Shown here piece after piece: positions 1 through 14,994 of a stretch of 54,286 nucleotides of DNA. The notes beneath the pieces were generated by a model. That model ran no database searches. It had not been told where the DNA came from and saw only the letters and a program-made list of their open reading frames with translations. The first letter of the stretch is position 1. Every line of letters begins with the position of its first letter. Both the position numbers and the translations under genes were made by a program. Source of the DNA: Luminiphilus sp. (GTDB lineage: Bacteria > Pseudomonadota > Gammaproteobacteria > Pseudomonadales > Halieaceae); the NCBI GenBank assembly GCA_016778045.1, contig JADHQG010000003.1, positions 1-54,286 on the forward strand, in the 5' to 3' direction.

Positions 1-2
1 GT

Positions 3-896
3 TTGCACGGCCTGCTCTTTGAGGGCGACATTCTGATGCTCTACGCCGAACTCGGCGTCTTGCTGTTATTGCTCTATCAATTGCCGACAAAATGCCTGCT
101 CTCGCTCGGGCTACTGCTGATGCTCAGCTTTCCAGTTGGCCATTTCCTGGGTGGCGATCGGGGCGATGAATGGCCTGCGGAAAATAACATGGAAGCCAGT
201 GCATGGCTTGACGAGGACCGCATGGATTCGCCACTCGCCGTGGGCGGCTTCACTGAAGTTTTGGCTTACCACGCCGCATTTTTGCCCGAGCGATTCTGGG
301 CTGACTGGCAGTATCCCGACTCGGGGTTTTTGGTACTTGCCTGTTTTCTACTAGGGTTTTGCCTCATGCGCAGCGGTTGGAGTGCGATGGCGCGGCTCGC
401 ACCCGCGCAATCGATGCGGATTGCGCTGGGGCTGTGGGTTTTTGGGCTGTCTCTCATGGCGATAGAGGGTTATTGGTCAGCCACCATGAGTTACGCGCCA
501 TTTGAGCGCTCGGGTGCCACGCCAATGCAGGTGCTGGGCGGCGATCTGGTGTATCTGGTCGCTACCCTCAGTTTGACCGGCGCCTGGTTTTTCAGCGTGC
601 GAAGTTGGGTTCAGAGCCGTTGGCTGGTCGCGCTGAGGAGCTTAATCGCCAGCGCCGGGCAGATGAGCTTGACTGGTTATCTCAGCCAGACGGTGATCTT
701 TACAACGGTTTTTTATGGCTACGGATTGGGCGTTGCCTTTGTGTGGGGGCCGACGCAAGTGCTTGCCTTCGCCGTTATTGTCTACGCCCTACAGGTCGTC
801 CTCTGCCACTGGTGGCTACAGCGATTTCGGCGCGGACCAGTGGAATGGCTGTGGCGCTGCTTGACCTACTGGCGCTGGGAGCCGATCAGACGCTGA
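3..896 (+). CDS. DUF418 family membrane protein, 5'-truncated
   Basis: C-terminal 297 residues of an integral membrane protein; the frame is open from the window edge, so the true start lies outside. Hydrophobic segments occur at about residues 10-25, 30-48, 105-124, 137-155, 176-198, 210-235 and 240-270. The tail carries GPVEWLWRCLTYW, a signature at the end of DUF418 proteins, which are inner-membrane proteins related to membrane acyltransferases and of mostly unknown function. The gene ends 30 bp from the 3' end of the convergent peptide synthetase gene, so the two are neighbours but not co-transcribed. Family assignment is good; biochemical role is unknown. Confidence 0.85.
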   Translation: MHGLLFEGDILMLYAELGVLLLLLYQLPTKCLLSLGLLLMLSFPVGHFLGGDRGDEWPAENNMEASAWLDEDRMDSPLAVGGFTEVLAYHAAFLPERFWADWQYPDSGFLVLACFLLGFCLMRSGWSAMARLAPAQSMRIALGLWVFGLSLMAIEGYWSATMSYAPFERSGATPMQVLGGDLVYLVATLSLTGAWFFSVRSWVQSRWLVALRSLIASAGQMSLTGYLSQTVIFTTVFYGYGLGVAFVWGPTQVLAFAVIVYALQVVLCHWWLQRFRRGPVEWLWRCLTYWRWEPIRR

Positions 897-925
897 TTGT
901 GTCGCGTTGCCACCGATAGCAGGGG

Positions 926-3900
926 CTAGTGAATTCGTTGAGTGGGGCTACCTGCATGAACGCCACTTTCCAGATTCATTGCTTTGAGCACCAGCGACTG
1001 TGGATCGACGGTGACGCCTGGCTCGAGATGCGCGCCGCCCATCAGCATGGTCCCGTGGTTGATGGCGGAGCCGTCTCCAATCGTCGTTCGGGACACTGTC
1101 AGCACGCGATCCTCGAAACTGTGCAGTTGCATTTGTCCGTTAATCACGCAGTTGTTGCCGATATCGACGGCATGCCAGTCAGACATCTGTAAGGGCAAAC
1201 CGATCAGTGTGCGTTGGCCTATCCGGCAGCCGAAGCGTCGCAGAATTGGGTTCGCGAGCGCCGTGCCTGATACCGTACTCATGAAGCCGGTCATCAGGCG
1301 GAAGAAGCAATCCTGCGCTAGAAAGTAGGTGAAGTGGCGCACGGACCAGAACGGCGCGCTGTTATGACGACCCCAGCGATTGCCGACCAGGATCTGCTTG
1401 ACGAGTAACGCGAGCAGGGGTAGCGACAGTGGTACGACAATGCTGGTGACCAATGCCGCACCCACGTTGCTGAAACCCATCATGTTGAGACTCACCAGTA
1501 AGCCGGTGGCCAGAAATACCGTGATCCCTGGAATGATGCCCACCGAGGCCAGATCGTTCAGTAAGAACCGCGCTAAAAAAATGCCGAGCGATGGGACTGG
1601 GTGCACAGGCAGGCTATGCGGATCGGGGGTGCCGATCTCCAGCGGCGGGTTACCTGCGAGCACGCGCTTGGTATCGGGGCGGTCGGTGTATTGCGGCCGG
1701 TACAAATGGGGCCCAAGCGGCGTCGAGACGCCGAGAAGTAGGTTACCAGGGACGGGCCCCGGCTCGACCATGGCATTGTTACTGCCGAAAAATCCGGCAG
1801 GCATTCTAATAGGTTGGGTCAGCAGGAAAGCGCCGTGCTCATCGAGAACGTTGCAGAAACAGCCCTGCGCGATGAACACGTTGGCATCCGCTTGGAGGTG
1901 CTCGGGGAGCAGGTTCACTAACTCGTCGCACTCTGAGCCCCCGACCCGCGAGAATTTGACGCCTGCCAGAGCACGCAGGTATTGGCCGGTGAGGCTCCAG
2001 CCCCACATCTGTTGAACCTGATTCATCTTGGTCTGCCGATAGCGGGCTAGCGTGCCCCGTAAGCTGGCAGCGCGGATCCAGCCCGGCGGAGTGGGGGTGA
2101 GCCGAAGAAACGTGCAGAGAATGAGCGAACTCGTGAGTACCCCCAGCCAGATGCCGATCACGCCAGCGCCACTCATCACTAACAGGTCGGGGGCCGTTAG
2201 CCTCTGCGCATCCAGATTCACTTTGCTGAGGGCCTCGAATCCAAGAAACCAGGTAGTCAGCAGGGCAATAAATGCACCGGGCACAATCACCAGCGAGAGT
2301 TCCAGCACAAATTGCATGGTGACATTACGCAGGTCGATCACCGCCTCGGTGAGTGCTGAGGAGGGAGCAAGGTCAGGTGTCTTGGCGGGTTGGTAGTTGC
2401 CCACTTTGCTGCCCGGGACCCCACTGATCTGGCTGTTGGGTTCAGTCACAGTGTTCAAGCTCGATAACGGAGTGAGCCATGAGTGATGTCCAAGCGACGC
2501 CCCTCCAGCCAGCATAGCCCGGCTCCCAACCCGCGCTTTTTCGCCGACGCGAATTGTGTCGAGAATAAATTCGCTCCCTTCCCAGCGAGTACTGCTGATT
2601 TGCACGCCTGCTTGCACCACCGCCTCTGGCCCGATTGAGATGAGTGATAGCGGGCCATACCACTCGGTGCTCTGAGCGATAAAGGCTTTGGGGTGAACGT
2701 CGGCGCCCAAACGTTTGAGCGCCCAGTTAAATAGCACCGGGCTACGCAATCCTTTTACCAGCGGCTTCAGCACAAAGTCGGCTTGTTGATCTAACCACCA
2801 CAGTTGCAAGTGATGACTCGAGAACTTTTGGTAGCGCCCGGGCGCGATGCTGGGTGTGCGCACTGAAATTGCCTGAATAGAGCGCAACAACAGCACCCAA
2901 CCTAGATTCACGAAGGGTACGACCATATAGACGCAGTAGGCGATGATGGTCGCCCGCAAAAAGCCCACGATATCCCCCACCAGCAACAATTCCTCTGGAT
3001 CGATAATGGCGAGCCCCAATGCGGCCATCAAAAGTACCGGCATCCTCAGTAACACCGCGGCCATGGCCTGTAGTGCTGTGAAATGTCGGAATCCATATAA
3101 ACGACCCGTTTGTCGGGCTGTTTCTGAGTGCGCCTCAGATCCCGCATGCGTTCCGGCGGTCGACTCCATTGACTCCTGCGCATGGTCACGCTGAGTTGGC
3201 AGCTTGGCGATGGCGGCCGCGGTGCGCGTCTCGCTTAATAAGCCCCTGACCGACACGGGATAGCCCGCCGCCTGAAGTTGCTGCGTCAATCGCGCAATCG
3301 CAATCGAGTGAGCGCCCCAGTCGATAAAGTCATCCTGCCAGTCGAGTGTTGGCCCAAGTTCAGCCCGACACAGGGTCAGCACCTCGGCCGGTAAAGGTGC
3401 GCTCCCGTCGTCGGTGGCAGCCATCGGTACAGCGATGTCTGATGCTTCGAACCGGGAGACATCTGCCACCGCGGGTAGGGCGCGGCGATTGATCTTGCCG
3501 GAGGCAGGCACCAGCTCAAATTGATTGACGAGAAAAAAGCGACTCGGTACCGCGTAGGGCGGGAATCGCGCTGAGATCAACTGCTGCGCCTCGCTGACCA
3601 ATGCGTGGTTTAAGGGCTGGATGTTGTCGCCCGCCGTGTCTTCCGACCAGAGAGTCGGGGCTCTCAATAAGGCGACGAGCTCATTACCCTGACAGTCCAA
3701 TACCGCTGTCTCAATGTCGGCAAATTGATCCTGCAACAGCGACTCGATGGGCTGTGCTTCGACCCGGTAACCCCTGACCTTCAATTGGGAATCAATGCGG
3801 CCATGGAAATGCACCCGCAGTGTGGTGGGGTCAACGTGGCACCGGTCTCCCGATCGGTAAATCTGCCCGAGCTCGGGATGTGTCATAAATCGCTCGCTGG

Positions 3901-5149
3901 TGATCTCGGGCAGATTGCGGTAGCCGCGGGCCAGCTGAATGCCGCCGATGCACAGCTCGCCCTCTTCACCATGCGGCAGGGGCGTCAGCGTGTCTGGGTC
4001 AACGATGGTATAGCTCACGCCGGGGAACGGACTGCCGATCGTGACAGGTTCATTGGGCCGCAGCAGTTGCCGGCTGGTATCGGTACTGACCTCTGTCGGG
4101 CCGTACGTGTTGACGATCTGTCGTCGGGCGCGAGACCAGGGCTCAATCAAGGTTGCGGGAAAGGCCTCGCCGGCAGGCACGATATAGCGGCAAATGGGGT
4201 AGGGCAGGTCGCGCTCGGGGTGTGCGGTCAGCGTTGACAGCAACACGGGCGGGCAAAAGAGCGCGGTCACGTGCGCATCGCGCAAAACAGGCAGCAAGTC
4301 AGGACCGGATCTCAGCGCCGATTTGGTCAGCAGCACGACCTCGCAGCCAGCGACCCAGGCGCTGTACATCTCGGAAATACTGCCGTCATATCCTAGCGAC
4401 GAGGTTAGCGAGCTGGCGTCACTGCCGGGCACGAAATCGTAAAAGGTCGCATAGGACTGGGCGAGGTTGATATAGCCCGCATGGGGGCATTCAACGCCCT
4501 TGGGGTGTCCGGTGGTGCCGCTGGTGTAAAACAGTGAAGCCAGTGTGCTCTGCGGGTCATCCAGCCACGGCGCCGAGCGTGCGCGGGAGGATCCCGACTC
4601 AGCTTGCCGGAGGAGCACTTCTGGCAATAGAAACTCTCCGCTATAGCCTGTGGGTAACGTGTGACTGATCAGCAGGGCGGGTTGGGCGTCGTCCAGCACA
4701 CGCAATAACAGTTCATCTGGCGCGTCGGGATCGATAAAGCATTGTGTGGCACCCGCCTTCAGGATGGCCAGATGCAGGGCAACGACGATGGCCGAGTTCT
4801 GGGGGAGCCGCACGGCCACGACCTGATCCGCCTCCGATACAGTATTGCCGATGACGGAAGCGAGCTGGTTGGCCAGTTGATCAAGCTCCGCGTAGGTCAG
4901 TGACTCCCCCGTCTCGGGAACCGATAGCGCGGTCAGCTCGGGGTATTGCGCCGCCGAGCGCTCAAAGATCTCGTGCAACCAGCGCGCACCCTGCTGGTGG
5001 CGGTGGGTACCCCAAGGGGTCGATGGATAGGATTGGGTGAGTGTGGGTTCCCGGCCGGGTGAGCAGGCGTTGTCAGCTACCACCTGGCGATAGCGGACCC
5101 AGGCCGCGGTCACGGCGGCGGGTAGCAGTGCGATCCACAGTAGCGTCAT
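926..5149 (-). CDS. Pls/PosA-type membrane-bound single-module nonribosomal peptide synthetase
   Basis: A 1407-residue protein with the layout of the Pls/PosA family (epsilon-poly-lysine synthetase-like). It has an N-terminal hydrophobic segment (about residues 2-18) and an adenylation domain at about 60-560: TSGTTGHPKG near 209-218, NTYGPTE near 348-354, YRSGDR near 431, catalytic Lys552 in SGKINRRALP. Asp255 in GYDGS matches the residue that binds the substrate amino group, so an amino acid substrate is expected. A carrier domain follows, with Ser615 in DWGAHS as the likely phosphopantetheine site. The C-terminal half has several membrane spans and hexapeptide-rich left-handed beta-helix stretches (about 850-960 and 1280-1390). 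There is no condensation or thioesterase domain; in Pls the C-terminal membrane domains join the monomers. It starts 33 bp after the amidinotransferase gene, so the two look like one operon. Substrate and product cannot be read from the sequence. Confidence 0.88.
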   Translation of the reverse strand: MTLLWIALLPAAVTAAWVRYRQVVADNACSPGREPTLTQSYPSTPWGTHRHQQGARWLHEIFERSAAQYPELTALSVPETGESLTYAELDQLANQLASVIGNTVSEADQVVAVRLPQNSAIVVALHLAILKAGATQCFIDPDAPDELLLRVLDDAQPALLISHTLPTGYSGEFLLPEVLLRQAESGSSRARSAPWLDDPQSTLASLFYTSGTTGHPKGVECPHAGYINLAQSYATFYDFVPGSDASSLTSSLGYDGSISEMYSAWVAGCEVVLLTKSALRSGPDLLPVLRDAHVTALFCPPVLLSTLTAHPERDLPYPICRYIVPAGEAFPATLIEPWSRARRQIVNTYGPTEVSTDTSRQLLRPNEPVTIGSPFPGVSYTIVDPDTLTPLPHGEEGELCIGGIQLARGYRNLPEITSERFMTHPELGQIYRSGDRCHVDPTTLRVHFHGRIDSQLKVRGYRVEAQPIESLLQDQFADIETAVLDCQGNELVALLRAPTLWSEDTAGDNIQPLNHALVSEAQQLISARFPPYAVPSRFFLVNQFELVPASGKINRRALPAVADVSRFEASDIAVPMAATDDGSAPLPAEVLTLCRAELGPTLDWQDDFIDWGAHSIAIARLTQQLQAAGYPVSVRGLLSETRTAAAIAKLPTQRDHAQESMESTAGTHAGSEAHSETARQTGRLYGFRHFTALQAMAAVLLRMPVLLMAALGLAIIDPEELLLVGDIVGFLRATIIAYCVYMVVPFVNLGWVLLLRSIQAISVRTPSIAPGRYQKFSSHHLQLWWLDQQADFVLKPLVKGLRSPVLFNWALKRLGADVHPKAFIAQSTEWYGPLSLISIGPEAVVQAGVQISSTRWEGSEFILDTIRVGEKARVGSRAMLAGGASLGHHSWLTPLSSLNTVTEPNSQISGVPGSKVGNYQPAKTPDLAPSSALTEAVIDLRNVTMQFVLELSLVIVPGAFIALLTTWFLGFEALSKVNLDAQRLTAPDLLVMSGAGVIGIWLGVLTSSLILCTFLRLTPTPPGWIRAASLRGTLARYRQTKMNQVQQMWGWSLTGQYLRALAGVKFSRVGGSECDELVNLLPEHLQADANVFIAQGCFCNVLDEHGAFLLTQPIRMPAGFFGSNNAMVEPGPVPGNLLLGVSTPLGPHLYRPQYTDRPDTKRVLAGNPPLEIGTPDPHSLPVHPVPSLGIFLARFLLNDLASVGIIPGITVFLATGLLVSLNMMGFSNVGAALVTSIVVPLSLPLLALLVKQILVGNRWGRHNSAPFWSVRHFTYFLAQDCFFRLMTGFMSTVSGTALANPILRRFGCRIGQRTLIGLPLQMSDWHAVDIGNNCVINGQMQLHSFEDRVLTVSRTTIGDGSAINHGTMLMGGAHLEPGVTVDPQSLVLKAMNLESGVHAGSPTQRIH

Positions 5150-5182
5150 CGAAGCCTGCCGCAGTTGGTCATGGTGGGTCCG

Positions 5183-6232
5183 TCAGGAAAAATAGGATTC
5201 CATCTTGCCACGGCGCCGGGTATCCAGCGTGACGCAGTGGAAGCCGCCGCCCATCATGCGCGAGTGGCGGAGTGTCAGCGGAATCACCTCCAGGCCTTTG
5301 GATTCGAGTAGCGCGATCAATCCTGTCTGGTAGCTGTCGACCACCACGGTATCGGGCCCGACACTGAATAGATTCATGTCGATCCATTCACTGCCGATGG
5401 CTTGCTGAAGGTATTCTGGACTATGACGCTCCTGGTTCTCCATCGGCGGACTGAAGATGATCTCCCAGTCTTTCAGGAACTCAGGGATGGTATCCATCGA
5501 CAGGCGTTCGGGGTTGGCCAGCACCAGCCCTGGTCGCAAAGCTACCAAGGTGGAGTCGATGTGGCTGCCGAAATACACGTCTTTCATGAAGTGCACACGG
5601 AACTCATCGCCGAGTGTACGCTGCAACCAATGACCGCCTAGTTCGTTGCCCGTGGCGCTGACTAAATAGAGGAGATCACGCCCAAAGCGCAAAATGTTGG
5701 CAGCGTCAAAAGCCGGTTCGAAGTTCTGAGGTGTCGGTGCGGCTGGGTCAAAGTCAAACAGGCGATCTTCCAGCAGCGGCTTGGGGGCGCTGAACCATTT
5801 GGCACCGCTGTCATAGTATTCCATGAGGAGACGCCGATAGGAGCCGGTCTCCAGCGAGCGGCCGCGAATCACATTGGGCGTCTCGATGATCGTATCGCCG
5901 ATTACCAGCAGCACGTCCCGGGGGCAGTAGTTGTAGTAACCCTGGGTTTCCCATTGGACCGTGCTGATGGTCCGCTCGTGGGGCCAGGTGTCAGGCCTCC
6001 GTACGGTGACACCGCGAGCCTCCAGGGTATCAACAAAGCCCTGCAAGTCTTCCTCGGTCTCTTCAATGATTTTGTCCGGGAAGGCGCCCTGAGGAATGTC
6101 CGCGACCTCGCGATCCGGATACTCCGCCAAACGGGTGCTCGGGTCGGCGTGAGGAAAGCGGGCACCGAGGGGGTTGCCCACGATGACTTCTTCGAGCGGA
6201 TCCCACTCGTTACAACTCCAGACTTGGGACAT
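5183..6232 (-). CDS. Amidinotransferase, glycine/inosamine-phosphate amidinotransferase family
   Basis: A 349-residue cytoplasmic enzyme of the AGAT/StrB family, which moves the amidino group of arginine to an acceptor amine, giving ornithine and a guanidino compound. The catalytic triad is visible: Asp176 in FDAANILRFGRDL, His224 in GSHIDSTL and Cys333 in GGGFHCVTLD. The second Asp of the usual FDAAD motif is Asn179 here, and the usual Met before the catalytic His (MHID) is Ser223; these positions lie near the acceptor pocket, so the acceptor may not be glycine. There is no signal peptide. It is the first gene of a two-gene unit with the Pls/PosA synthetase, which suggests that it supplies a guanidinylated building block or modifies the product. 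The ribosome site before the ATG is weak. Family is confident; acceptor unknown. Confidence 0.9.
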   Translation of the reverse strand: MSQVWSCNEWDPLEEVIVGNPLGARFPHADPSTRLAEYPDREVADIPQGAFPDKIIEETEEDLQGFVDTLEARGVTVRRPDTWPHERTISTVQWETQGYYNYCPRDVLLVIGDTIIETPNVIRGRSLETGSYRRLLMEYYDSGAKWFSAPKPLLEDRLFDFDPAAPTPQNFEPAFDAANILRFGRDLLYLVSATGNELGGHWLQRTLGDEFRVHFMKDVYFGSHIDSTLVALRPGLVLANPERLSMDTIPEFLKDWEIIFSPPMENQERHSPEYLQQAIGSEWIDMNLFSVGPDTVVVDSYQTGLIALLESKGLEVIPLTLRHSRMMGGGFHCVTLDTRRRGKMESYFS

Positions 6233-6291
6233 CTTTTGCTACTCGTCTGTCTAACCCCGGCCCGTCAGCGTCACTTTTGACCGGTACAACG

Positions 6292-6316
6292 AAAAAGGGC
6301 CGCCCGGAGGCGGCCC
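6292..6316 (-). terminator. Rho-independent terminator of the small exported protein gene
   Basis: On the minus strand an 8-bp perfect G+C stem (GGGCCGCC / GGCGGCCC, arms 6309-6316 and 6297-6304, 4-nt loop) is followed directly by five T (A run at 6292-6296 on the plus strand). It lies 22 bp past the stop of the 126-residue protein gene and upstream of the amidinotransferase start. It therefore separates the two minus-strand transcripts. Confidence 0.85.
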
Positions 6317-6338
6317 CTGGTATTTCCTCAAGAGGCGT

Positions 6339-6719
6339 TTAGCCGGCCTCACTTTCCCATAATGCGCTGCCGTGGCAGGTCATGGTCTCGCGCTCCATTT
6401 GCGCGACGTCAGAAGAGGGGTAGGCTTCCCACCATTCGCCGTAATTGCTGAATGATCCCCAGCCTACGACCATCATCACATCGGTGCCATCGCCATCAGC
6501 ACCTACAGCGACTGGGTACAGAGACCATACATTCATGCCCTCACCACCGGGCAACTCGCTCGCTGCCTTTTTCCATGCAGTCGCTTGTGCCATCACGGCT
6601 TCTTCGTTTGTGTCGCCGTTGATGTTGCATTTCCACATTTGAACCGGTTGACCCGCCGATGCGAAGGGTGAAACCAGCATCAGGGCGGCAACTGCACTTA
6701 TAAAACCTTTGATTTTCAT
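6339..6719 (-). CDS. Small exported protein of unknown function
   Basis: A 126-residue protein with a clear Sec signal peptide (MKIKGF, hydrophobic core, cleavage after PFASA near residue 22). The mature part is about 104 residues, rich in Trp, Gly and acidic residues, with two cysteines (in MWKCNI and MTCHGS) that could form a disulfide. I do not recognise the family. A strong AAGGAGA ribosome site lies 5 bp before the ATG, and a strong terminator follows the gene, so it is probably a well-expressed single-gene transcript. It sits between the amidinotransferase/synthetase pair and the flavoprotein cluster. Periplasmic or secreted location is inferred from the signal peptide. Confidence 0.75.
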   Translation of the reverse strand: MKIKGFISAVAALMLVSPFASAGQPVQMWKCNINGDTNEEAVMAQATAWKKAASELPGGEGMNVWSLYPVAVGADGDGTDVMMVVGWGSFSNYGEWWEAYPSSDVAQMERETMTCHGSALWESEAG

Positions 6720-6851
6720 GGGATCTCCTTGGTTGACCTCAGATAGAAGCTAACAAGGAGCCATGACGAGTGCAATCGTCGATTCCGGCCTGTCACCTAT
6801 TGCTAAATCCTGCAGATAGCCGCTGCCCAAGGCTAAGCGCCTCGAACCGCG

Positions 6852-8351
6852 CTAGTCGCTCTTTGCCAACCTTGCACCCAGCAGACGTCCAAACGTGATA
6901 GCGGGGGTCACCAGCATGCCATTGGTATACGCGGCACCCGAAGTGGCACCCGCGCCGATCACCTCGCCGATGGCGAACAGGTTGAGGATCGGTCGCCGCT
7001 CGGGGTCCAGCACTTGGAAATTCGTGTTCACACTGAGCCCGGCAAAGGAGACCAGCGTCCACCCCTGCATGGCAATGGCGTAAAAAGGCGCTTTTTCGAT
7101 TGTCATAGGTCGATGTGTTCTGCCAAGGCGGTCTGTCTCGCCTTGCCGCACTCTACGGTTGTAGTCGTCGATATTCTGCTTGAGGGCCGCCGCGTTGATG
7201 CCCGCTCGAAAAGCGAGCGTCTCAAGACTCATGGCACGACTGAACATTGGGTGCGATTGATGTTCCGTGGCGAGGCGATCGCGACTCCAATCCGGAATGA
7301 TCGGTTCGGACTTTGCCAGCATGTCAGCATCATAGATGGCCCAGTGCCGGTGGCCTGGCTGTCGATAAATGCCCCGCTCAATTTGATGGACGCTGGGGTG
7401 ATCCTCCCGCACAAATCGTTCACCGCGGGCATTCACCAAAATCTCCCATGGCTGGCGCACCATCGGATGTAAAGGCGCCCAGGCATGCATTTGAGCGGGG
7501 TACTGCCACGCGTCAGGGACCAGTCCCGGCAAGCTGGCATATTTTTCGCCGCCTACGATGGCGCCGCCGGCTGACATCCCCAAAATCAGCCCATCTCCTT
7601 GTGAGGTGGGATAGGCGGTTTTGGCATAGAGTGGCACGCCATGGAGATCCTCGAACAGTCTGGGATTGGCCGCGCACCCGCCAGACGCGAGCACCACATG
7701 GGATCCCCTGAAGTCGTGGGTGCCCGAGGGGCCTGTGGCGGTCACACCGACGATCTTGCCCGAGCGCTCCTGAATGAGTCCCTCTACTGCAGTGCCGGTC
7801 AGCAGGGTGACCTGTTGCTGAGCAATGCTCGCCTCAAGGGAGGGGAGAAAGGCCTCCAATATCGACAGGCCACTTTTGACTCCCTGCTGGTAACGCCGGG
7901 TGGTGAAGTGGTCGTGGCCAATGCCCGTGACCGGGTGCCCCGCCATGACCTCAAAGCCACGCTCTGCCAGCCAATTGATGGTGTCACCGGCATGGTCAAC
8001 GGTGAGGCGGGTGAGCGCCGGATCAGCGGTGTTTTCGTTGATGCGCATACAGTCATCGAAATGTGCGTCGGGGCTATCAGTGATACCCAGGCGTTGTTGG
8101 AATACGGTTCCCGCGCCGGCGATTTGGCCGGTAGACCAAAACAGGGTGCCGCCCAAAGCGGGACTCTTTTCTATCAGCAATACCCGCGCACCGCCCTGCG
8201 CGGCGAACAACGCGCAGGGAATACCCGCGGTGCCGCCTCCGACCACGATAACGTCGTAGTGCCGGGAGGGATCTGCTCGCGTGGTGTCCGTTCGGCTCAG
8301 CGATAGGGCGGCTACGCTGGCGAGTAAAGTTCTCCTGCTCAGATTCAGCAC
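6852..8351 (-). CDS. Tat-exported FAD-dependent oxidoreductase (FAD_binding_2 / flavocytochrome c type)
   Basis: A 499-residue flavoprotein. The GTG start at 8351 is chosen because GGAGG lies about 10 bp upstream and the reading then begins VLNLSRRTLLASVAALS, a twin-arginine signal. A longer frame to 8531 would run 131 bp into the upstream SDR gene. The FAD dinucleotide motif VVGGGTAGIPCALFAAQGG and the trailing Glu-Lys are near the mature N-terminus, and the C-terminal FAD-binding part reads NLFAIGEVIGAGATSG. This fold is shared by periplasmic fumarate reductase-like flavoproteins and 3-ketosteroid dehydrogenases. It likely oxidises or reduces a small organic substrate in the periplasm; which one is unknown. 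It lies 49 bp downstream of the SDR gene, probably in the same transcript. Confidence 0.85.
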   Translation of the reverse strand: MLNLSRRTLLASVAALSLSRTDTTRADPSRHYDVIVVGGGTAGIPCALFAAQGGARVLLIEKSPALGGTLFWSTGQIAGAGTVFQQRLGITDSPDAHFDDCMRINENTADPALTRLTVDHAGDTINWLAERGFEVMAGHPVTGIGHDHFTTRRYQQGVKSGLSILEAFLPSLEASIAQQQVTLLTGTAVEGLIQERSGKIVGVTATGPSGTHDFRGSHVVLASGGCAANPRLFEDLHGVPLYAKTAYPTSQGDGLILGMSAGGAIVGGEKYASLPGLVPDAWQYPAQMHAWAPLHPMVRQPWEILVNARGERFVREDHPSVHQIERGIYRQPGHRHWAIYDADMLAKSEPIIPDWSRDRLATEHQSHPMFSRAMSLETLAFRAGINAAALKQNIDDYNRRVRQGETDRLGRTHRPMTIEKAPFYAIAMQGWTLVSFAGLSVNTNFQVLDPERRPILNLFAIGEVIGAGATSGAAYTNGMLVTPAITFGRLLGARLAKSD

Positions 8352-8400
8352 TCGACGTCGTCCTCCATGGATTCGATTATTAAGATTGTGGGTGAGCAAT

Positions 8401-9192
8401 TCACTCCGGTCTGGCTTTAATGCGCAGCCAGCGTCGCGTCCAGACGGACTGAAAAATGGGATCCAGCCAGCGGTACAGACGCCCCGACACGACGACGGGT
8501 TTTCCGGCTTCCACGCCCTTAATGGCATCACGCACTACGACATCCGCGTCGTACCACAGCCATTTGGCCATATTGTTTTTCATCTCCATGAGACCGGCGG
8601 TGTCGTGAAAGTCGGTGTGAGTGAAGCCCGGGCAGAGGGCGGAAACATGGACGCCCTGTGTCGCAACAGTGAGGTTCAATTCCTCTGACAATGCCACCAG
8701 GTAAGCCTTGGTCGGGCCATAGTTACAGCCACCCGAGCGCGGGACTCGCGCCGCCACCGATGCCACATTCACGACGCGCCCGTAGCCGCGCGCTGCCATC
8801 TGCGGTATCAGGCGGTGACACAAATCCGCCACCGAGAGCATCATTAATTGAAAAAACCTGTTTTGCGTTGACCAGTCACGATCTTTCAGTAAGTCAGGGC
8901 CCGCCACGCCGGCGTTGTTCACCAGCCAATCGACCTGCCAGCCAGCGTCAAGACAGCGCGTGGCGACTCGCTCGCCTGCTCCGGGGTCAGACAGGTCAGC
9001 GACGATGATTTCACAGTCCACGCTATAAATCTGGCGAAGGGATTCAGCGAGCGACTGCAGACGATCTTCGCGTCGCGCCACCAGAATGAGACCATGTTGT
9101 TGGGCCGCGAGTTGTCGCGCAAATTCGGCGCCCAGTCCCGCAGAGGCGCCGGTGATCAGTGCATAGCCGCCATGGTTGGCCGTATCTGTCAC
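8401..9192 (-). CDS. Short-chain dehydrogenase/reductase
   Basis: A 263-residue classical SDR. It shows the nucleotide motif TGASAGLG near residue 14, NNAG near 91, the catalytic Ser in NVASVA and the YxxxK pair in YGPTK. These enzymes oxidise alcohols or reduce ketones with NAD(P)H. The basic residue run ARREDR after the second strand suggests NADP preference (inference). The C-terminal 60 residues (LYRWLDPIF and on) are hydrophobic and basic, as in SDRs that associate with membranes or lipid substrates. It lies between the SnoaL-like gene (52 bp upstream) and the flavoprotein (49 bp downstream). Substrate unknown. Confidence 0.9.
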   Translation of the reverse strand: MTDTANHGGYALITGASAGLGAEFARQLAAQQHGLILVARREDRLQSLAESLRQIYSVDCEIIVADLSDPGAGERVATRCLDAGWQVDWLVNNAGVAGPDLLKDRDWSTQNRFFQLMMLSVADLCHRLIPQMAARGYGRVVNVASVAARVPRSGGCNYGPTKAYLVALSEELNLTVATQGVHVSALCPGFTHTDFHDTAGLMEMKNNMAKWLWYDADVVVRDAIKGVEAGKPVVVSGRLYRWLDPIFQSVWTRRWLRIKARPE

Positions 9193-9244
9193 GGCCGCTA
9201 ACCGAAAAATACTTTGGGCAAAGACGGCATCTTTGGCGCCGGTC

Positions 9245-9733
9245 TCACAGCGTCATGGACCAGCTGTGGAGACGAATTTTCCATGTCCCCGAATCATCTT
9301 TGGCGACCACATCAATGTAATGGCTAGTGGTGGACTCACCCTCAAGCGCGCCCTCTGGCAAGTCATCCTCCGCTGCGCTGTCAACGATGCGGCGGATTGT
9401 GTAGTCGTACTCGACCACCGCTGCATCACCCATCATGGTAATGCTGTGCGGCACGTCGATGGTGATCTCGTAGCGCGCAGTGGCAAAGACCGGGCCAAGA
9501 AATTCCCGATAGTTTTCCCGACCGTCAAGGCCGGGCACGCCCGGCGGGCGCAAACTGACATCAGGGTGTAATCCGCCCACGTAGCCGTCGATGTCGCTGG
9601 CTTCTACCGCTGTGATCCAGCCCTGGTAGAGCGCGAGGATTTCCGCGTGGTCGTCTGCCGCGTGACCGACCGGTGATAAGGTCAGGGCCAGCGCAGCGGC
9701 AAGAGAGAGAAGCAGTGCTTTGATCTGTGACAT
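9245..9733 (-). CDS. Exported SnoaL-like / NTF2-fold protein
   Basis: A 162-residue protein with a Sec signal peptide (core LLLSLAAALALTLS, cleavage after GHA near residue 25). A single NTF2-like domain follows: an initial helix (EILALYQGWITAVEASDIDGYV) and the strand pattern ending TWKIRLHSWSM that is typical of SnoaL/DUF4440 proteins. Such folds act as cyclases, isomerases or binding proteins. The export signal makes a periplasmic role likely. It is probably the first gene of an operon with the SDR and the Tat flavoprotein, suggesting a shared small-molecule pathway. No catalytic residues can be assigned from the sequence alone. Confidence 0.75.
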   Translation of the reverse strand: MSQIKALLLSLAAALALTLSPVGHAADDHAEILALYQGWITAVEASDIDGYVGGLHPDVSLRPPGVPGLDGRENYREFLGPVFATARYEITIDVPHSITMMGDAAVVEYDYTIRRIVDSAAEDDLPEGALEGESTTSHYIDVVAKDDSGTWKIRLHSWSMTL

Positions 9734-9980
9734 GGCGGGTCAATTCCTGTTTTGGTTGTTGTCATGATGGAATGCTATTGATTCTGTGCAGATCGCCCGC
9801 GAATCGCAAGCCGGTTAGGGTCCACGTCAGCTAATGGATGCTGCGGTTTTGACCGAACCAGCGCGCGCTGATGGTAAAGAGTCAGATTGGGTCGATCTGC
9901 GGTGCTAGAACGCTCCCGCCGCGAGACAAAGCCGAAGGCACAGCGACTGTCAGGGTGTCTTGATGGAGTGTCTAACGTTC

Positions 9981-10784
9981 TCAGCCCCTTAGAAAGTCTG
10001 ATACCGCAGCAACCCACTCGTTAGGCATTTGATCAGTGATGTCGACGCCCCCGCCTTGCAATTCACAAAATGCAAAGTCGGGCCTCATCTCATGTGCTCT
10101 TTTCGCATGCTCATAAATGATGTCGCCGGTGTTGATGAGAATCATCGTACGGTGTTTGATTTTCGGCAGCGTGACATTGTGATCATAGGTAAAGGCCGCG
10201 TTGTGTCCGTACCAGAACGGTCCATACCCCTGAAATTGCTCGACCACATACCGAGTGACCAGGGCGGGGTCGGTCCCTTTTTCTGCCCAGTTCCACCGGC
10301 GACTGAATACCTCGCTGAGGTGAGAGCCGTCGTGTTTGTGCTCAAAGTTCTTCTCGAAATTTTCAACAAACGCGTTCCATTCAACCAGTTCCTCGGGTGT
10401 GAAAGGACAGGGGCCATTGATCACCAGGTTGCGGACTCGGTCAGGAAATTGAAGCGCGACTTCAGTCGCAATCAGTCCGCCAGTGTGATGCCCAAGGATA
10501 TCGGTTTGAGTGATCCCAAGATGATCCAGGACCGGCGGTATGGCTGTCGCGTAGTCCTCGACCGACGGGACATGGTTCGGCTCGTCAGACAGTCCAAATC
10601 CCGGTGTATCGATGCCAATTGCGCGAATACCCTCGGCGGAGAGAAGCGGGTAGACCGTATCGTATTGGCGCGAAGTCATCGGCGCTTGATGACAGAGCAC
10701 CAGAGGGAACCCTTCACCGCCAGTGTCCTGATAATGGATTTGCCCAAAAGGACCATCCGTGTAGCCGCGGCGGGGTCGTGTCAT
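9981..10784 (-). CDS. Alpha/beta-hydrolase fold protein with non-canonical active site
   Basis: A 267-residue protein with alpha/beta-hydrolase features: the oxyanion-hole strand LVLCHQAPMTS, GIDTPGFGLSD and the elbow LGHHTGG. The elbow normally reads G-x-Ser-x-G, but the nucleophile position is His100. The usual C-terminal catalytic His in a GGGHD context is Val248 (GGGVD). The acid loop NTGDIIYEHA keeps Asp. So two of the three triad residues are replaced. It may be a cofactor-free lyase or oxygenase, an enzyme with another mechanism, or a non-catalytic member. There is no signal peptide. It is 247 bp upstream of the SnoaL-like gene on the same strand, so co-transcription is possible but not shown. 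Confidence 0.8.
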   Translation of the reverse strand: MTRPRRGYTDGPFGQIHYQDTGGEGFPLVLCHQAPMTSRQYDTVYPLLSAEGIRAIGIDTPGFGLSDEPNHVPSVEDYATAIPPVLDHLGITQTDILGHHTGGLIATEVALQFPDRVRNLVINGPCPFTPEELVEWNAFVENFEKNFEHKHDGSHLSEVFSRRWNWAEKGTDPALVTRYVVEQFQGYGPFWYGHNAAFTYDHNVTLPKIKHRTMILINTGDIIYEHAKRAHEMRPDFAFCELQGGGVDITDQMPNEWVAAVSDFLRG

Positions 10785-10821
10785 CAGGATAGCGCCTCGC
10801 TGTCACCCAACATTCTCACCA

Positions 10822-11943
10822 CTATACCTCCCTTGACGGCGCCAGACCGAGTACTTCTAGGTAGGCTGCGGCGCTCGAGGCTTGGTGATATGCGGTGACG
10901 GCCTCGACCAGATCATTGCCATCGGGGCGGTGGGCAAGGGTGGACAGTAGCGCCTCAGCGAGCGCTTCGGTGTCGCCCATGGCGACCAGCGGCGCAACGC
11001 GACCGCTATCGAGTAACTCCTTTGGGCCACTCGGGCAGTCGGTACTCACCACCGGCACCCCCAGCCCCATGGCCTCGGTCAGCGTGTTGGGCGAACCCTC
11101 CCATCGAGACGAGAGCGCAAACACACTGGCCCGTTTCATCCACGCCCACGGATTGTCCTGAAAGCCGGGCAATGCAACATCTTCCGCTACACCAAGCGTC
11201 TCGGCTTGAGCCAGTAAATCAGACCGCAGCCTACCGTCTCCCAGAATAATCAGTCGCGCCTGTCGCTGCGCGCGAACCAAGGCAAAGGCCGACAGCAGAG
11301 TGGGGAAATCTTTTTGCTCGGTCAGGCGTCCCACTCCGAGTATGACGGGAATATCCGACGCAGTTTGCAGCCACGGATGGTCGACGGGGTGCTCAGCGGC
11401 TTGTAGCAACTCAGGCGTGATAGTGGGATTGCGCACCACCGTAATCTGTGGGGGTTTCATGTCAGTGATAGCCATCACATCGTCGGCGACACCCTGTGAG
11501 ACGGCAACCAACGTCTCCAGCTGGGGGTAATGGCGCCGCATGGCGCGATACCAGCTTTGTTGACGGCGTCGGGATTTGCTCGCTAAGGCAGCCGATACCG
11601 TGGTGCCCAAGCGTCCGGAGATCGGCGTGGTTGTACCCGCCAGCCGCCTCGCTCTGAGCGCTGCCAATATCGCGCGATGCTTGATCGCCAGCAGAGCCGT
11701 TGGCCGCTCTGTGCGCAGATATCGAGAGACTTCCCAGACGCTGGTCAGCGAGTGCTTTGCGCGCAGTCGAATGATATTGGCGTTATTGGGTAGCCTGTCG
11801 ACATACGGCCCCTGAGCTTTGATGAGTAGCACGTCGAGATCGATCGGGGTTTCGACAAAGGCCCGGCACAGATTGGCCACCATGCGCTCCACGCCACCTT
11901 GTCCAGAAAAGGAAACCAGAATTGCCAGTTTTGGCCGTGACAC
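10822..11943 (-). CDS. Glycosyltransferase family 4 protein
   Basis: A 373-residue GT-B glycosyltransferase. The N-terminal acceptor half starts KLAILVSFSGQGGVERM, a loop typical of GT4. The donor half begins near VILGVGRLTEQKDF and contains EGSPNTLTEAMGLGVPVVST, the E-x7-E motif that contacts the nucleotide sugar. Cytoplasmic, probably peripheral to the inner membrane, adding a sugar to a surface glycan or lipid carrier. The start is GTG at 11943, since an overlapping ATG two codons upstream is out of frame. It is divergent from the AsnB-like gene, a common companion of surface polysaccharide genes. Sugar donor and acceptor unknown. Confidence 0.88.
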   Translation of the reverse strand: MSRPKLAILVSFSGQGGVERMVANLCRAFVETPIDLDVLLIKAQGPYVDRLPNNANIIRLRAKHSLTSVWEVSRYLRTERPTALLAIKHRAILAALRARRLAGTTTPISGRLGTTVSAALASKSRRRQQSWYRAMRRHYPQLETLVAVSQGVADDVMAITDMKPPQITVVRNPTITPELLQAAEHPVDHPWLQTASDIPVILGVGRLTEQKDFPTLLSAFALVRAQRQARLIILGDGRLRSDLLAQAETLGVAEDVALPGFQDNPWAWMKRASVFALSSRWEGSPNTLTEAMGLGVPVVSTDCPSGPKELLDSGRVAPLVAMGDTEALAEALLSTLAHRPDGNDLVEAVTAYHQASSAAAYLEVLGLAPSREV

Positions 11944-11999
11944 TGCATATCGCCTTCAGAGAGCTGTTTCGAGGTTAGCACAGGGCTGACGGCCGTGAC

Positions 12000-12028
12000 T
12001 TGGTGAGGCCGAGCCTCGCGCTTACACT
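12000..12028 (+). promoter_or_regulatory. Candidate sigma-70 promoter for the AsnB-like gene
   Basis: TTGGTG (12000-12005), a 17-bp spacer and TACACT (12023-12028) match a sigma-70 promoter reasonably well. Transcription would begin near 12035, giving a leader of about 75 nt. Just before the start codon, AGCTC (12089-12093) and GAGCT (12102-12106) can pair and would cover the only purine-rich ribosome site. This is sequence matching only. Confidence 0.4.
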
Positions 12029-12110
12029 CTATCTATTCCGACGCAGTGGAGGCTCGATGCCTGCTCTCTCTCAGTCCGCTTTTTTCACAGCTCGTTGGTG
12101 TGAGCTCTAG

Positions 12111-13922
12111 ATGTGTGGTCTGGCGGGCATTGCAGCCCGCGGCGAACTCTCTGCTGACCGGCTGCCCTTTGCGCTTGCGGCGCTACAGCACCGAGGCCCC
12201 GATGGGCAGGGCGATTCCATCGAACAGCGGGTGGCGCTGGGGCATACGCGACTTTCGATTATCGATCTCGAGGGGGGGGCGCAACCGCTGCGCTCGCCCT
12301 GCGGCCGCTATGTACTGGTGGCCAACGGGGAAATCTATAACCACCTAGAGCTGCGTTCGGAGCTTTTGGCGCTCGGCGCACCGTTTCAAACCGGTTCAGA
12401 CTGCGAGGTGATCCTTCAGGGCTACCGACTGTGGGGTCGAGACATTCTCGATCGCCTTGAAGGGATGTACGCCTTTGCGTTGCAGGATATCGAGTCAGGC
12501 GAGGTATTGCTGGCTCGGGATCCGCTGGGCATGAAGCCGCTTTACTGGTCCGAAAGTCGCGACGGTGTGCACTTTGCCTCTGAGCTTAAGGCGCTATTGG
12601 CGCTATTGCCCTCCACACCGGTTCTCAACTCGCTCGCGCTCTTGCAATACATCGAGGCGCAGCATCCGCTCTCCCGCAATACACCGTTTGAGGGGGTGCA
12701 GCGATTGTTGGCTGGTGAGGCGCTGTTGATCCGCGATGGCCGTTGCGTCGATCAATGGCGTCACTGGACACTGAATCAGCTTGTCAGCGCGGAGATGGAG
12801 GATCCCGTAGCGGCACTCGATGAGCTGATGGAGGTCGTATTCACCCAGCACCAACGATCTGATGTGCCCATTGGTCTGTTTCTGTCAGGCGGGGTCGATT
12901 CGACCATTCTGCTCGGCTTGATGCGACGCTACGGTATGGAAAACATCCATACATTCTCGCTGGGATTTCCCGACTCTTCCGTCGGCGACGAGCTGGATGT
13001 CGCCACCCGCCTAGCCACACACTTTGGCACCGTCCACCGTGTTATTACGCCCAAGGCAGATGACATGTTGTCGCGACTGCCGCAGGTTGTTTGGGCGGCG
13101 GATGATCTCATGCGCGACCCCGCGAGCCTGCCGACATTGCTGCTCGCTGAGCAGGCCAGCCACACGATGAAAGTCGTATTTTCGGGGGAAGGTGGTGATG
13201 AGAGCTTCGCGGGGTATGGCCGCTATCGCACAGGTGCGCTGGAGCGTTTCTTCAAGAGTTTGTTGTTCCCTGGTACGGGTGGGTTTCGTTCCCGAGGGGA
13301 TTTGCGAGGCGCCGTTGCGCGGCAATTGCTCGGTGACCGACTGATGGCGGTGCGTGGCGAGTGGCGTTCGGAGCTCGCTACTAGCTGGCAGTCGTTTCCT
13401 GCGCGATGGACATCGCTGCAGAAGATGCAGGCGCTGGATCTACAGCATGCACTACCTGACAACCTGCTGGTCAAGGCAGATCGCATGCTGATGGCGCATG
13501 GCGTGGAGGGGCGGATGCCCTTTGTTGATCGGCGGGTGGTGTCGTGGGGCTTGGGCTTGGCGGATGCGCTGAAATGCGATCAGCGCGAGGGTAAGAAAAT
13601 CCTCAAGGCTTGGGCACAAACTTTTATGCCGGCGGATCATTTTGCCGCGAAAAAGCGCGGTTTTTACGTGCCTGTCAATGACTGGTGGCAGGGCAATCGA
13701 CTCGAGGCCTTGGGGCGTGTGCTCAGCGGTAATGACGCGATTCGAGAGTGGTTCAAGCCCGCTGGGGTCGACAGCTTACTCAGAGAGCAAGGCCGGTCGC
13801 ACCGCGTTGGGCGCCAATTGATGACCCTGTTGCAGTTCGCGCTGTGGCATCGGCTCTTTGTCGAGTCATCGACGCCGTCACTGCCAGAGGTGGGTGACCC
13901 GCTGGCATTGCTGTCTCAATAG
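12111..13922 (+). CDS. asnB: Asparagine synthase (glutamine-hydrolysing) family amidotransferase
   Basis: A 603-residue class-II glutamine amidotransferase fused to an ATP-pyrophosphatase synthetase domain. The start is fixed because Cys2 (MCGLAGI) must become the N-terminal nucleophile. The glutaminase half shows LQHRGPDG, GHTRLSI and NGEIYN. The synthetase half has the PP-loop SGGVDST near residues 259-265 and GEGGDESFAGYGRY. The reaction is either aspartate to asparagine or amidation of another carboxylate: many bacterial AsnB homologues in polysaccharide clusters amidate surface sugars or lipids. The divergent GT4 gene fits that, but plain asparagine synthesis cannot be excluded. Confidence 0.88.
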   Translation: MCGLAGIAARGELSADRLPFALAALQHRGPDGQGDSIEQRVALGHTRLSIIDLEGGAQPLRSPCGRYVLVANGEIYNHLELRSELLALGAPFQTGSDCEVILQGYRLWGRDILDRLEGMYAFALQDIESGEVLLARDPLGMKPLYWSESRDGVHFASELKALLALLPSTPVLNSLALLQYIEAQHPLSRNTPFEGVQRLLAGEALLIRDGRCVDQWRHWTLNQLVSAEMEDPVAALDELMEVVFTQHQRSDVPIGLFLSGGVDSTILLGLMRRYGMENIHTFSLGFPDSSVGDELDVATRLATHFGTVHRVITPKADDMLSRLPQVVWAADDLMRDPASLPTLLLAEQASHTMKVVFSGEGGDESFAGYGRYRTGALERFFKSLLFPGTGGFRSRGDLRGAVARQLLGDRLMAVRGEWRSELATSWQSFPARWTSLQKMQALDLQHALPDNLLVKADRMLMAHGVEGRMPFVDRRVVSWGLGLADALKCDQREGKKILKAWAQTFMPADHFAAKKRGFYVPVNDWWQGNRLEALGRVLSGNDAIREWFKPAGVDSLLREQGRSHRVGRQLMTLLQFALWHRLFVESSTPSLPEVGDPLALLSQ

Positions 13923-14081
13923 ATCGACCACAACGGATCTTAGCGAGAGAACCGTGTGTGGTTGTGAGCGCTGGGCGGTCGCTCGCTGCAGCCGTTATAC
14001 TGATCTGCCCTGCTGCCGGCGCGCTGCACGACATACCAGTGAACCTGTCGGCGCGCTGATTTTCATAAAGCGGAGAACAGA

Positions 14082-14870
14082 ATGTCTGATCGAGTTGCTG
14101 TCAACGTATCGGCCCACATTGCCCATGTCACGCTGACCCGCGCGGACAAAATGAACGCGCTGGACCCCGCGATGTTCGAGGCGATTTGTTCCGCCATTGA
14201 TGAATTAAACACCTTGGACGATTTGCGCGCCGTAGTGGTGTCGGGTGAGGGCCGCGGATTTTGCGCTGGTCTCGATCTGTCCAATTTTTCCAGCGACAGC
14301 GAACCGATGGATTTGATGCTTCGCACCCACGGCGCTGCCAATATGCCACAGCAAATTGCCTGGGGTTGGCGAACGCTGCCGGTGCCGGTCATTGCCGCCG
14401 CCCACGGCGTGGCGATTGGCGGTGGGCTGAATATTATGTCGGGGGCCGATATCCGGATTATCCACCCCGACACACGCTGTGCCGTGATGGAAATGCGCTG
14501 GGGTTTGGTGCCCGATATGGCGGGATATCCCCTTTGGCGAGGTAATGTTCGCGACGACGTGCTGCGCAAGCTTGTTTACACTCATGCTGAGTTCTCGGGT
14601 GCCGATGCCTGTGCAATGGGCTTTGCCACAGAAGTCGCGGAGGAACCGTTGTCACGCGCCATGGCGTTGGCAGATGAGATTGCAGGCAAGAATCCCCACG
14701 CCATTCGGGCCGCAAAGCGACTCTCAAATGCGTTGGCAACCAGCACCGACGAGGAACTGCTGCTGGCCGAATCAGAGGAGCAGACCCAGATTATCGGCAA
14801 GCCAAATCAGATCGAGGCGGTGATGTCCCAGATGGAGGGTAGGCCCGCGGCTTATCCAGACAGCGTCTGA
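14082..14870 (+). CDS. Crotonase family protein (enoyl-CoA hydratase/isomerase)
   Basis: A 262-residue crotonase-fold enzyme acting on acyl-CoA in the cytoplasm. The oxyanion-hole segments are visible: GFCAGLDLS near 60-67 and AIGGGLNIM near 111-119. Glu137 (AVMEM) sits at the first catalytic position and Asp145 (GLVPDMAG) at the second, eight residues apart. True hydratases usually have Glu at both, while dienoyl-CoA isomerases have Glu/Asp; however, the third isomerase acid is Asn117 here. So the product may be an isomerase or a variant hydratase. CGGAGAA precedes the ATG at a good distance. It looks monocistronic. Confidence 0.88.
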   Translation: MSDRVAVNVSAHIAHVTLTRADKMNALDPAMFEAICSAIDELNTLDDLRAVVVSGEGRGFCAGLDLSNFSSDSEPMDLMLRTHGAANMPQQIAWGWRTLPVPVIAAAHGVAIGGGLNIMSGADIRIIHPDTRCAVMEMRWGLVPDMAGYPLWRGNVRDDVLRKLVYTHAEFSGADACAMGFATEVAEEPLSRAMALADEIAGKNPHAIRAAKRLSNALATSTDEELLLAESEEQTQIIGKPNQIEAVMSQMEGRPAAYPDSV

Positions 14871-14994
14871 GGAATCTTCCGACCCAGATCAACAGACAGG
14901 GCAAACCCTCGCCAATGCTAGAATAGGAGTGGTTGCGCAGGACGACACCGCCCTGCGACTGCGGTCCTTCTGGCACGGCTAAAGTGAGACAGCG

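What the first reader, a model, noticed from the sequence alone, without database searches (positions are those of the whole stretch)
926..6232. Amidinotransferase plus Pls/PosA synthetase: candidate guanidinylated peptide or polymer system
Seen: two minus-strand genes 33 bp apart. One is an AGAT/StrB-type amidinotransferase with an intact Asp176/His224/Cys333 triad but an altered acceptor-side motif (SHID, FDAAN). The other is a Pls/PosA-type synthetase with an amino-acid-type A domain (Asp255), a carrier Ser615 and membrane/beta-helix C-terminus, and no thioesterase. Known: Pls relatives make isopeptide homopolymers such as epsilon-poly-lysine or short amino-acid conjugates; amidinotransferases make guanidino groups. 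Inference: the pair makes a guanidino-bearing amino acid polymer or conjugate, probably at the membrane. I know of no described product with exactly this gene pair.
Basis: partly seen in the sequence, partly recalled or inferred. Interest (0 to 1): 0.75.

Follow-up and report, generated by a model that had tools for sequence, protein, structure and literature searches.

The report
Guanidino-peptide synthesis gene cluster
Two neighbouring genes in a marine bacterium belong to a rare gene cluster, found in scattered species of several bacterial phyla, that probably adds an arginine-like group to a small amino acid and then links that amino acid into an unknown product at the cell membrane.

Summary
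In detail: an amidinotransferase (AMT) and a Pls/PosA-like NRPS (PLS) lie 33 bp apart. They are a fixed pair: PLS occurs in 56 of 66 core AMT loci (5 of the other 10 are cut contigs), in six phyla by record title, with congruent distances (Mantel r 0.92). The cluster is larger than the finding: SbnA and SbnB (2,3-diaminopropionate synthesis) in 31 of 66 loci, a PPTase, and a membrane protein (DUF418, or TraX, fused to PLS in Acidobacteriota). The window contig ends inside DUF418; in most near kin sbnB-sbnA lie beyond it.
The PLS pocket code is invariant (DGSF[V/I]ATTDK, 44 of 44). It lacks the Glu that binds the side-chain amine in PosA and has Asp at a neighbouring contact. Best reading: diaminopropionate is guanidinylated, activated by PLS, joined at the membrane and capped; a poly-lysine-type isopeptide is then unlikely. 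Against: 12 of 28 AMT-bearing relatives show no SbnB, and AMT and PLS stay under purifying selection in a clade without SbnAB, so the acceptor is unproven. Ten paper searches (some with capped lists) showed no such cluster. New variant of a known kind.

The parts
5183..6232 (-). Amidinotransferase (AMT), 349 aa, StrB1/AGAT-like; triad codons Asp176 5705-5707, His224 5561-5563, Cys333 5234-5236
926..5149 (-). Pls/PosA-like single-module NRPS (PLS), 1407 aa
3920..4966 (-). PLS adenylation core (residues 62-410); pocket Asp255 4385-4387, Ser259 4373-4375, Asp357 4079-4081
3203..3385 (-). PLS carrier domain (residues 589-649), phosphopantetheine Ser615 at 3305-3307
950..3172 (-). PLS C-terminal membrane domain (residues 660-1400), seven hydrophobic segments in three groups by crude hydropathy, hexapeptide repeats, NRPS_term_dom-like
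6339..6719 (-). SIG126: small protein with an N-terminal hydrophobic segment (signal-peptide-like), unknown family, in 37 of 66 core loci
3..896 (+). C-terminal part of a DUF418 membrane protein, cut by the contig start, converging on PLS; sbnB-sbnA lie beyond it in most near kin

Best explanation
The two genes are the core of a cluster for a guanidino amino-acid product. SbnA and SbnB make L-2,3-diaminopropionate (Dap). AMT moves the amidino group of L-arginine onto the side-chain amine of Dap, giving L-2-amino-3-guanidinopropionate (AGPA) and ornithine. A PPTase primes Ser615 of PLS. The PLS adenylation domain holds the alpha-amine with Asp255 and the cationic side chain with Asp357/Thr348, and loads AGPA on the carrier. 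The C-terminal membrane domain forms amide bonds; with the side-chain amine blocked, the free alpha-amine is the likely nucleophile, giving an alpha-linked oligomer or a short conjugate. The DUF418/TraX protein probably acyl-caps it. Shown: gene content, conservation, active-site letters, the pocket change against PosA. Inferred: AGPA as substrate, bond type, capping, export.
For: PLS lies in the same locus as AMT in 56 of 66 core loci and in 23 of 24 with full flanks. Among 146 genomes (own included), 23 of 24 with a TIGR02353 domain also have AMT; the exception, G024, has its PLS cut by a contig end. AMT and PLS distances agree: Mantel r 0.92 over 41 loci and 0.90 over 20 outside the Luminiphilus-like set, 0 of 2000 permutations each. 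SbnA+SbnB in 31 of 66 loci and 16 of 24 with full flanks, upstream of AMT on its strand in 19 of the 31. Both exceed their NCBIfam equivalog cut-offs in L098. SbnB over cut-off: 10 of 30 chosen AMT-bearing genomes against 2 of 398 in a phylum sample; at E 1e-20 the figures are 20 of 30 and 120 of 398. Pocket DGSF[V/I]ATTDK in 44 of 44 PLS of at least 1200 aa; the same extraction returns PosA's published DMEHNGTVSK. PosA's Glu221 is Ser here, and Ser313, which contacts the terminal amine, is Asp. Amidinotransferases acting on diamino acids are known (AmtA on Lys and Orn, PMC4887976). DUF418 in 16 and TraX in 5 of 24 full-flank loci, never both; TraX fused to PLS in 4 acidobacterial loci.
Against: SbnB is not seen in the window's own genome (67.8% complete, contig begins in DUF418). 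Of the 28 AMT-positive genomes, 12 have no SbnB match at E 1e-15: own, G004, G012, G013, G014, G023, G026, G032, G033, G039, G041, G046. Some are contig-cut or incomplete (G026, a near relative, ends in PLS), and G014's AMT is a distant homologue, but in others the place beyond DUF418 is present and empty of sbnAB. G025 has SbnB lacking an internal stretch. Eight of 24 full-flank loci lack both genes; 10 of 30 genomes have no SbnB at E 1e-20. Yet AMT and PLS stay under purifying selection in SbnAB-less pairs (dN/dS 0.03-0.07 and 0.12-0.14). So Dap is either imported there or not the acceptor. AmtA did not accept Dap. In the near-kin locus L063 SbnA (265 of 350 bits) and SbnB (311 of 327) fall below their equivalog cut-offs. 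The pocket code string occurs in no held paper, so no substrate can be read from it. Five loci have AMT without PLS in reach (L079, L093, L109, L111, L118).
Confidence: 0.45

Rival explanations
1. The AMT acceptor is another amine (ornithine, lysine, diaminobutyrate or an unknown), and Dap enters the product as a second building block or not at all.
For: Lineages with intact AMT+PLS but no SbnAB; AmtA uses Lys and Orn, not Dap; the AMT relative on the Robbsia plasmid lies about 7 kb from an ectB (diaminobutyrate aminotransferase) annotation, with no SbnAB in that stretch.
Against: sbnA-sbnB lie upstream of AMT in the same direction in 19 loci of several phyla, and over-cut-off SbnB is rare elsewhere (2 of 398). 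The PLS pocket code is the same with or without SbnAB.
Confidence: 0.25
2. PLS activates Dap itself and makes a poly-Dap-like isopeptide polymer; AMT guanidinylates chain ends or side chains afterwards.
For: Poly-Dap synthesis in Streptomyces albulus PD-1 uses a cysteine-synthase-like and an ornithine-cyclodeaminase-like protein plus a Pls-type enzyme (PMC4668381, passages read).
Against: The Glu that binds the side-chain amine, present in all six canonical references, is Ser in 44 of 44 PLS here. AGAT, CyrA, StrB1 and AmtA, as described in PMC4887976, act on small molecules.
Confidence: 0.12
3. AMT serves only to make ornithine or a free guanidino compound, and PLS activates an unrelated amino acid.
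For: The reaction releases ornithine; an earlier genomics paper read an amidinotransferase in NRPS neighbourhoods as an ornithine source (PMC2922099, passages read).
Against: Tight co-inheritance of AMT with this one PLS clade, and an Asp at the side-chain end of the pocket, which suits a cation.
Confidence: 0.12

Closest known systems
Pls/PosA cationic homopoly(amino acid) synthetases (epsilon-poly-lysine, delta-poly-ornithine, poly-Dap)
   Same: A-PCP-membrane C-terminal layout; weak homology along most of the C-terminal domain; PPTase and acetyltransferase neighbours in some canonical loci
   Different: Separate clade on a long branch; pocket Glu replaced by Ser, Asp at position 9; below the family cut-off; AMT partner
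Poly-L-diaminopropionate pathway of Streptomyces albulus PD-1 (PMC4668381)
   Same: Two-enzyme Dap synthesis of the same kind supplying a Pls-type enzyme
   Different: There the Dap genes are not near the synthetase gene, and the search listings count no occurrence of amidinotransferase in that paper
StrB1 inosamine-phosphate amidinotransferase
   Same: Closest solved relative; same triad and FDAAN motif
   Different: Acceptor is an aminocyclitol phosphate; different pathway
AmtA of phaseolotoxin biosynthesis
   Same: Arginine-dependent amidination of a diamino acid for a peptide product
   Different: Accepts Lys and Orn, not Dap

Membership tests
AGAT/StrB-type amidinotransferases | Full-length homology and Asp-His-Cys triad | tested here: met
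   no curated Pfam or NCBIfam model rings
AGAT/StrB-type amidinotransferases | Arginine as amidino donor; identity of the acceptor | not testable with these tools
   Arg243, recalled as the donor carboxylate binder in AGAT, is invariant in alignment A1; no assay
Pls/PosA synthetases | A-PCP module without C or TE domain, membrane C-terminus with paired TM segments | tested here: met
   TM by crude hydropathy, which also flagged one segment inside the A domain
Pls/PosA synthetases | NRPS_term_dom (TIGR02353) above curated cut-off | tested here: not met
   125.7 against 423.1 bits; 0 of 146 genomes over cut-off
Pls/PosA synthetases | Asp for the alpha-amine and Glu for the side-chain amine in the pocket | tested here: not met
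   Asp kept, Glu is Ser in 44 of 44; Glu in 6 of 6 references
Pls/PosA synthetases | Isopeptide homopolymer as product | not testable with these tools
   no assay
SbnA/SbnB Dap pathway | Both genes with the cluster | tested here: inconclusive
   31 of 66 loci and most near kin, but no SbnB in the window's incomplete genome nor in 12 of 28 AMT-positive genomes

The most novel reading that the evidence does not exclude
A new class of membrane-assembled guanidino peptides: AGPA units joined through alpha-amide bonds by a diverged Pls clade and acyl-capped by a DUF418/TraX enzyme, carried by horizontal transfer among several bacterial phyla.
Probability: 0.33. Interest if true: 0.78.

Novelty: new variant of a known kind. 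Interest (0 to 1): 0.6.

Why it matters
If true, it adds a guanidino, arginine-like branch to the small set of known cationic poly(amino acids) and shows how a Pls enzyme changes substrate. The cluster occurs in named strains (HTCC2080, HTCC2148, Zhengella mangrovi; recalled as harmless environmental isolates, not checked here), so the product can be looked for directly. It would also link the poorly understood DUF418 and TraX membrane proteins to peptide capping.

Tried and rejected
Rejected: canonical diamino-acid homopolymer (pocket Glu absent). Rejected: the FAD, SDR and NTF2-like genes upstream (6852-9733) as cluster members; they keep the neighbourhood only in the closest kin. Rejected: an apparent extra family 'f40' in L090, L103 and L110. 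One search put an SbnB in L110 at the place where my first ORF choice had taken an antisense frame, and the HMM map then found SbnA and SbnB in all three. Guanidine or other riboswitch: none in 1-15000 at Rfam gathering scores. Signature code in held papers: no hit. Replacement precursor genes in SbnAB-less loci: Pfam on ten neighbours showed no diamino-acid enzyme. Paper searches: (all ten allowed; some searches listed 20 of 235, 38 and 4,070, and one search listed 10 of 11).

For this I lowered the main confidence from 0.50 to 0.45 and the novel case from 0.35 to 0.33, and raised the first rival from 0.22 to 0.25.

Full report
Observation. AMT is closest to StrB1 among solved structures; the 'altered' FDAAN is StrB1's own motif. 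PLS has A and PCP domains, hexapeptide repeats and no C or TE family; crude hydropathy finds seven C-terminal segments in three groups, and one more inside the A domain.

Context in kin. The window is contig C54 of a 1.87 Mb, 67.8% complete genome; nearest named relatives are Luminiphilus/Halieaceae MAGs. AMT matches 28 of 146 genomes at E 1e-30, own included; one of them, G014, is a distant 37% homologue without PLS on its 7.7 kb contig. In the genus the block SIG126-AMT-PLS, with DUF418 converging, is kept wherever the contig reaches. TIGR02353 domains occur in 24 of 146, none over cut-off, and 23 of those 24 genomes have AMT. The reverse is 23 of 28: G012, G026 and G038 have only part of PLS on cut contigs, G046's PLS is split, and G014 has none.

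Wider spread. A scan of 84,980 species gave 69 loci with AMT relatives. It used two exact peptide patterns, so it is a lower bound. I set aside L115, L121 and L122 (Streptomyces, Actinomadura, Chloroflexi); L121 has only an NRPS A-domain match. Of the 66 left, 56 hold PLS, 5 are cut within 1.5 kb and 5 have no PLS in reach: L079, L093, L109, L111, L118. In L102 PLS is a fragment upstream, and in L100 a 57-bit fragment. A few loci come from one genome (for example L117/L127). By record title they fall in Pseudomonadota, Acidobacteriota, Planctomycetota, Verrucomicrobiota, Thermodesulfobacteriota and, with the fragment only, Cyanobacteriota; these are mostly MAG labels. A phylum sample found AMT at E 1e-100 in 1 of 398 genomes, the window's own: rare and patchy. 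The AMT tree mixes phyla, with 16 of 60 inner branches well supported, and AMT and PLS distances agree. Horizontal transfer of the pair as a unit is the simplest reading but is not proven.

The larger cluster. Clustering of neighbours showed SbnA, SbnB, a PPTase, DUF418 and an S41 peptidase. HMM mapping found SbnA+SbnB in 31 of 66 loci (L065 with an SbnB that lacks an internal stretch), DUF418 in 28, TraX in 10, PPTase in 24, S41 in 12, SIG126 in 37. Outside the Luminiphilus-like set, sbnB is upstream of AMT on its strand in 19 of the 20 loci that have both genes, L113 being the exception. DUF418 and TraX exclude each other in 24 full-flank loci (16, 5, and 3 with neither). TraX is the C-terminal domain of PLS in four acidobacterial proteins. 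That both belong to one membrane acyltransferase superfamily, and that TraX acetylates pilin, is recalled. Canonical Pls loci also carry acetyltransferases: GNAT in Sphingomonas and Aureimonas, an HGSNAT-domain protein in Rhodococcus, 3 of the 6 canonical loci fetched, with flanks of 3 to 9 kb.

Substrate. Code extraction by alignment reproduces PosA's published DMEHNGTVSK. All 44 PLS of at least 1200 aa read DGSF[V/I]ATTDK (shorter pieces were dropped). Asp for the alpha-amine is kept; PosA's Glu221 is Ser; PosA's Thr304 is Thr and Ser313, which contacts the terminal amine, is Asp. This suits a cation held differently, such as a guanidinium. With Dap genes next door and an amidinotransferase between them and PLS, AGPA is the natural candidate. 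It is an inference. In PosA's paper a homologue with code DSECYGGVTK showed modest activity with arginine; a Streptomyces plasmid homologue here has that same code and is the closest of the six canonical references.

Against. Twelve of the 28 AMT-positive genomes, own included, have no SbnB match at E 1e-15. Some are cut or incomplete, but L067, L069, L071, L088, L089, L095, L105 and L118 have full flanks and neither gene, and 10 of 30 genomes searched with TIGR03944 have none at E 1e-20. G025's SbnB lacks an internal stretch. The AMT tree needs 7 changes of SbnAB state over 38 scored rows (28 with, 10 without; I scored L066 and L070 as without on shorter flanks, both also empty). dN/dS shows AMT and PLS remain selected without SbnAB. 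Dap may be taken up, or the acceptor may differ. AmtA rejects Dap. In the window's own genome SbnB is not found. Near kin: G024, G030, G050 and G052 show PLS-DUF418-sbnB-sbnA in one piece; G038, G042 and G043 show sbnA-sbnB-DUF418 on a contig that does not reach PLS; G037 has a partial SbnB on its PLS contig; G026, 92% identical in AMT, has no hit, its contig ending in PLS.

Membership and novelty. PLS works like a Pls enzyme but fails two defining tests (family cut-off, pocket Glu), so I call it a sister clade; a tree of 20 proteins separates it on a long branch with SH-aLRT 100 and a long-branch warning. Papers: PMC10522769 (abstract, two parts of Results and the section on the C-terminal domain read), PMC4668381, PMC4887976 and PMC2922099 (passages read); the others only as search listings. 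None of the ten searches showed this cluster in what they listed; some lists were capped, and most subscription papers are outside that library.

Noticed in passing
L030 (Robbsia andropogonis plasmid p3) 571-15041 and L115 (Streptomyces hygroscopicus) 3207-12614: A different cluster shared by a betaproteobacterium and a streptomycete: AMT 61-62% identical to the window's, with a PurD-like ATP-grasp, SDR, aldehyde dehydrogenase, a ligase (of different kinds) and an MFS-type gene, no PLS.
   Followed up: partly
L187, L188, L189: Canonical Pls/PosA genes on plasmids sit beside acetyltransferases (HGSNAT-domain or GNAT) and, in L188 and L189, a PPTase, suggesting that acyl capping or self-protection may be common in this enzyme class.
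   Followed up: partly
L184 8932-12951: Streptomyces plasmid Pls homologue with pocket code DSECYGGVTK, the code of the Bdellovibrionales enzyme reported to activate arginine.
   Followed up: no
window 6339-6719: SIG126, a small signal-peptide-like protein with no Pfam or NCBIfam match, tracks the cluster in 37 of 66 loci; role unknown.
   Followed up: partly
L080 16396-17637 and L090 16280-17485: A protein family of about 400 aa without Pfam match next to PLS in two alphaproteobacterial loci.
   Followed up: no
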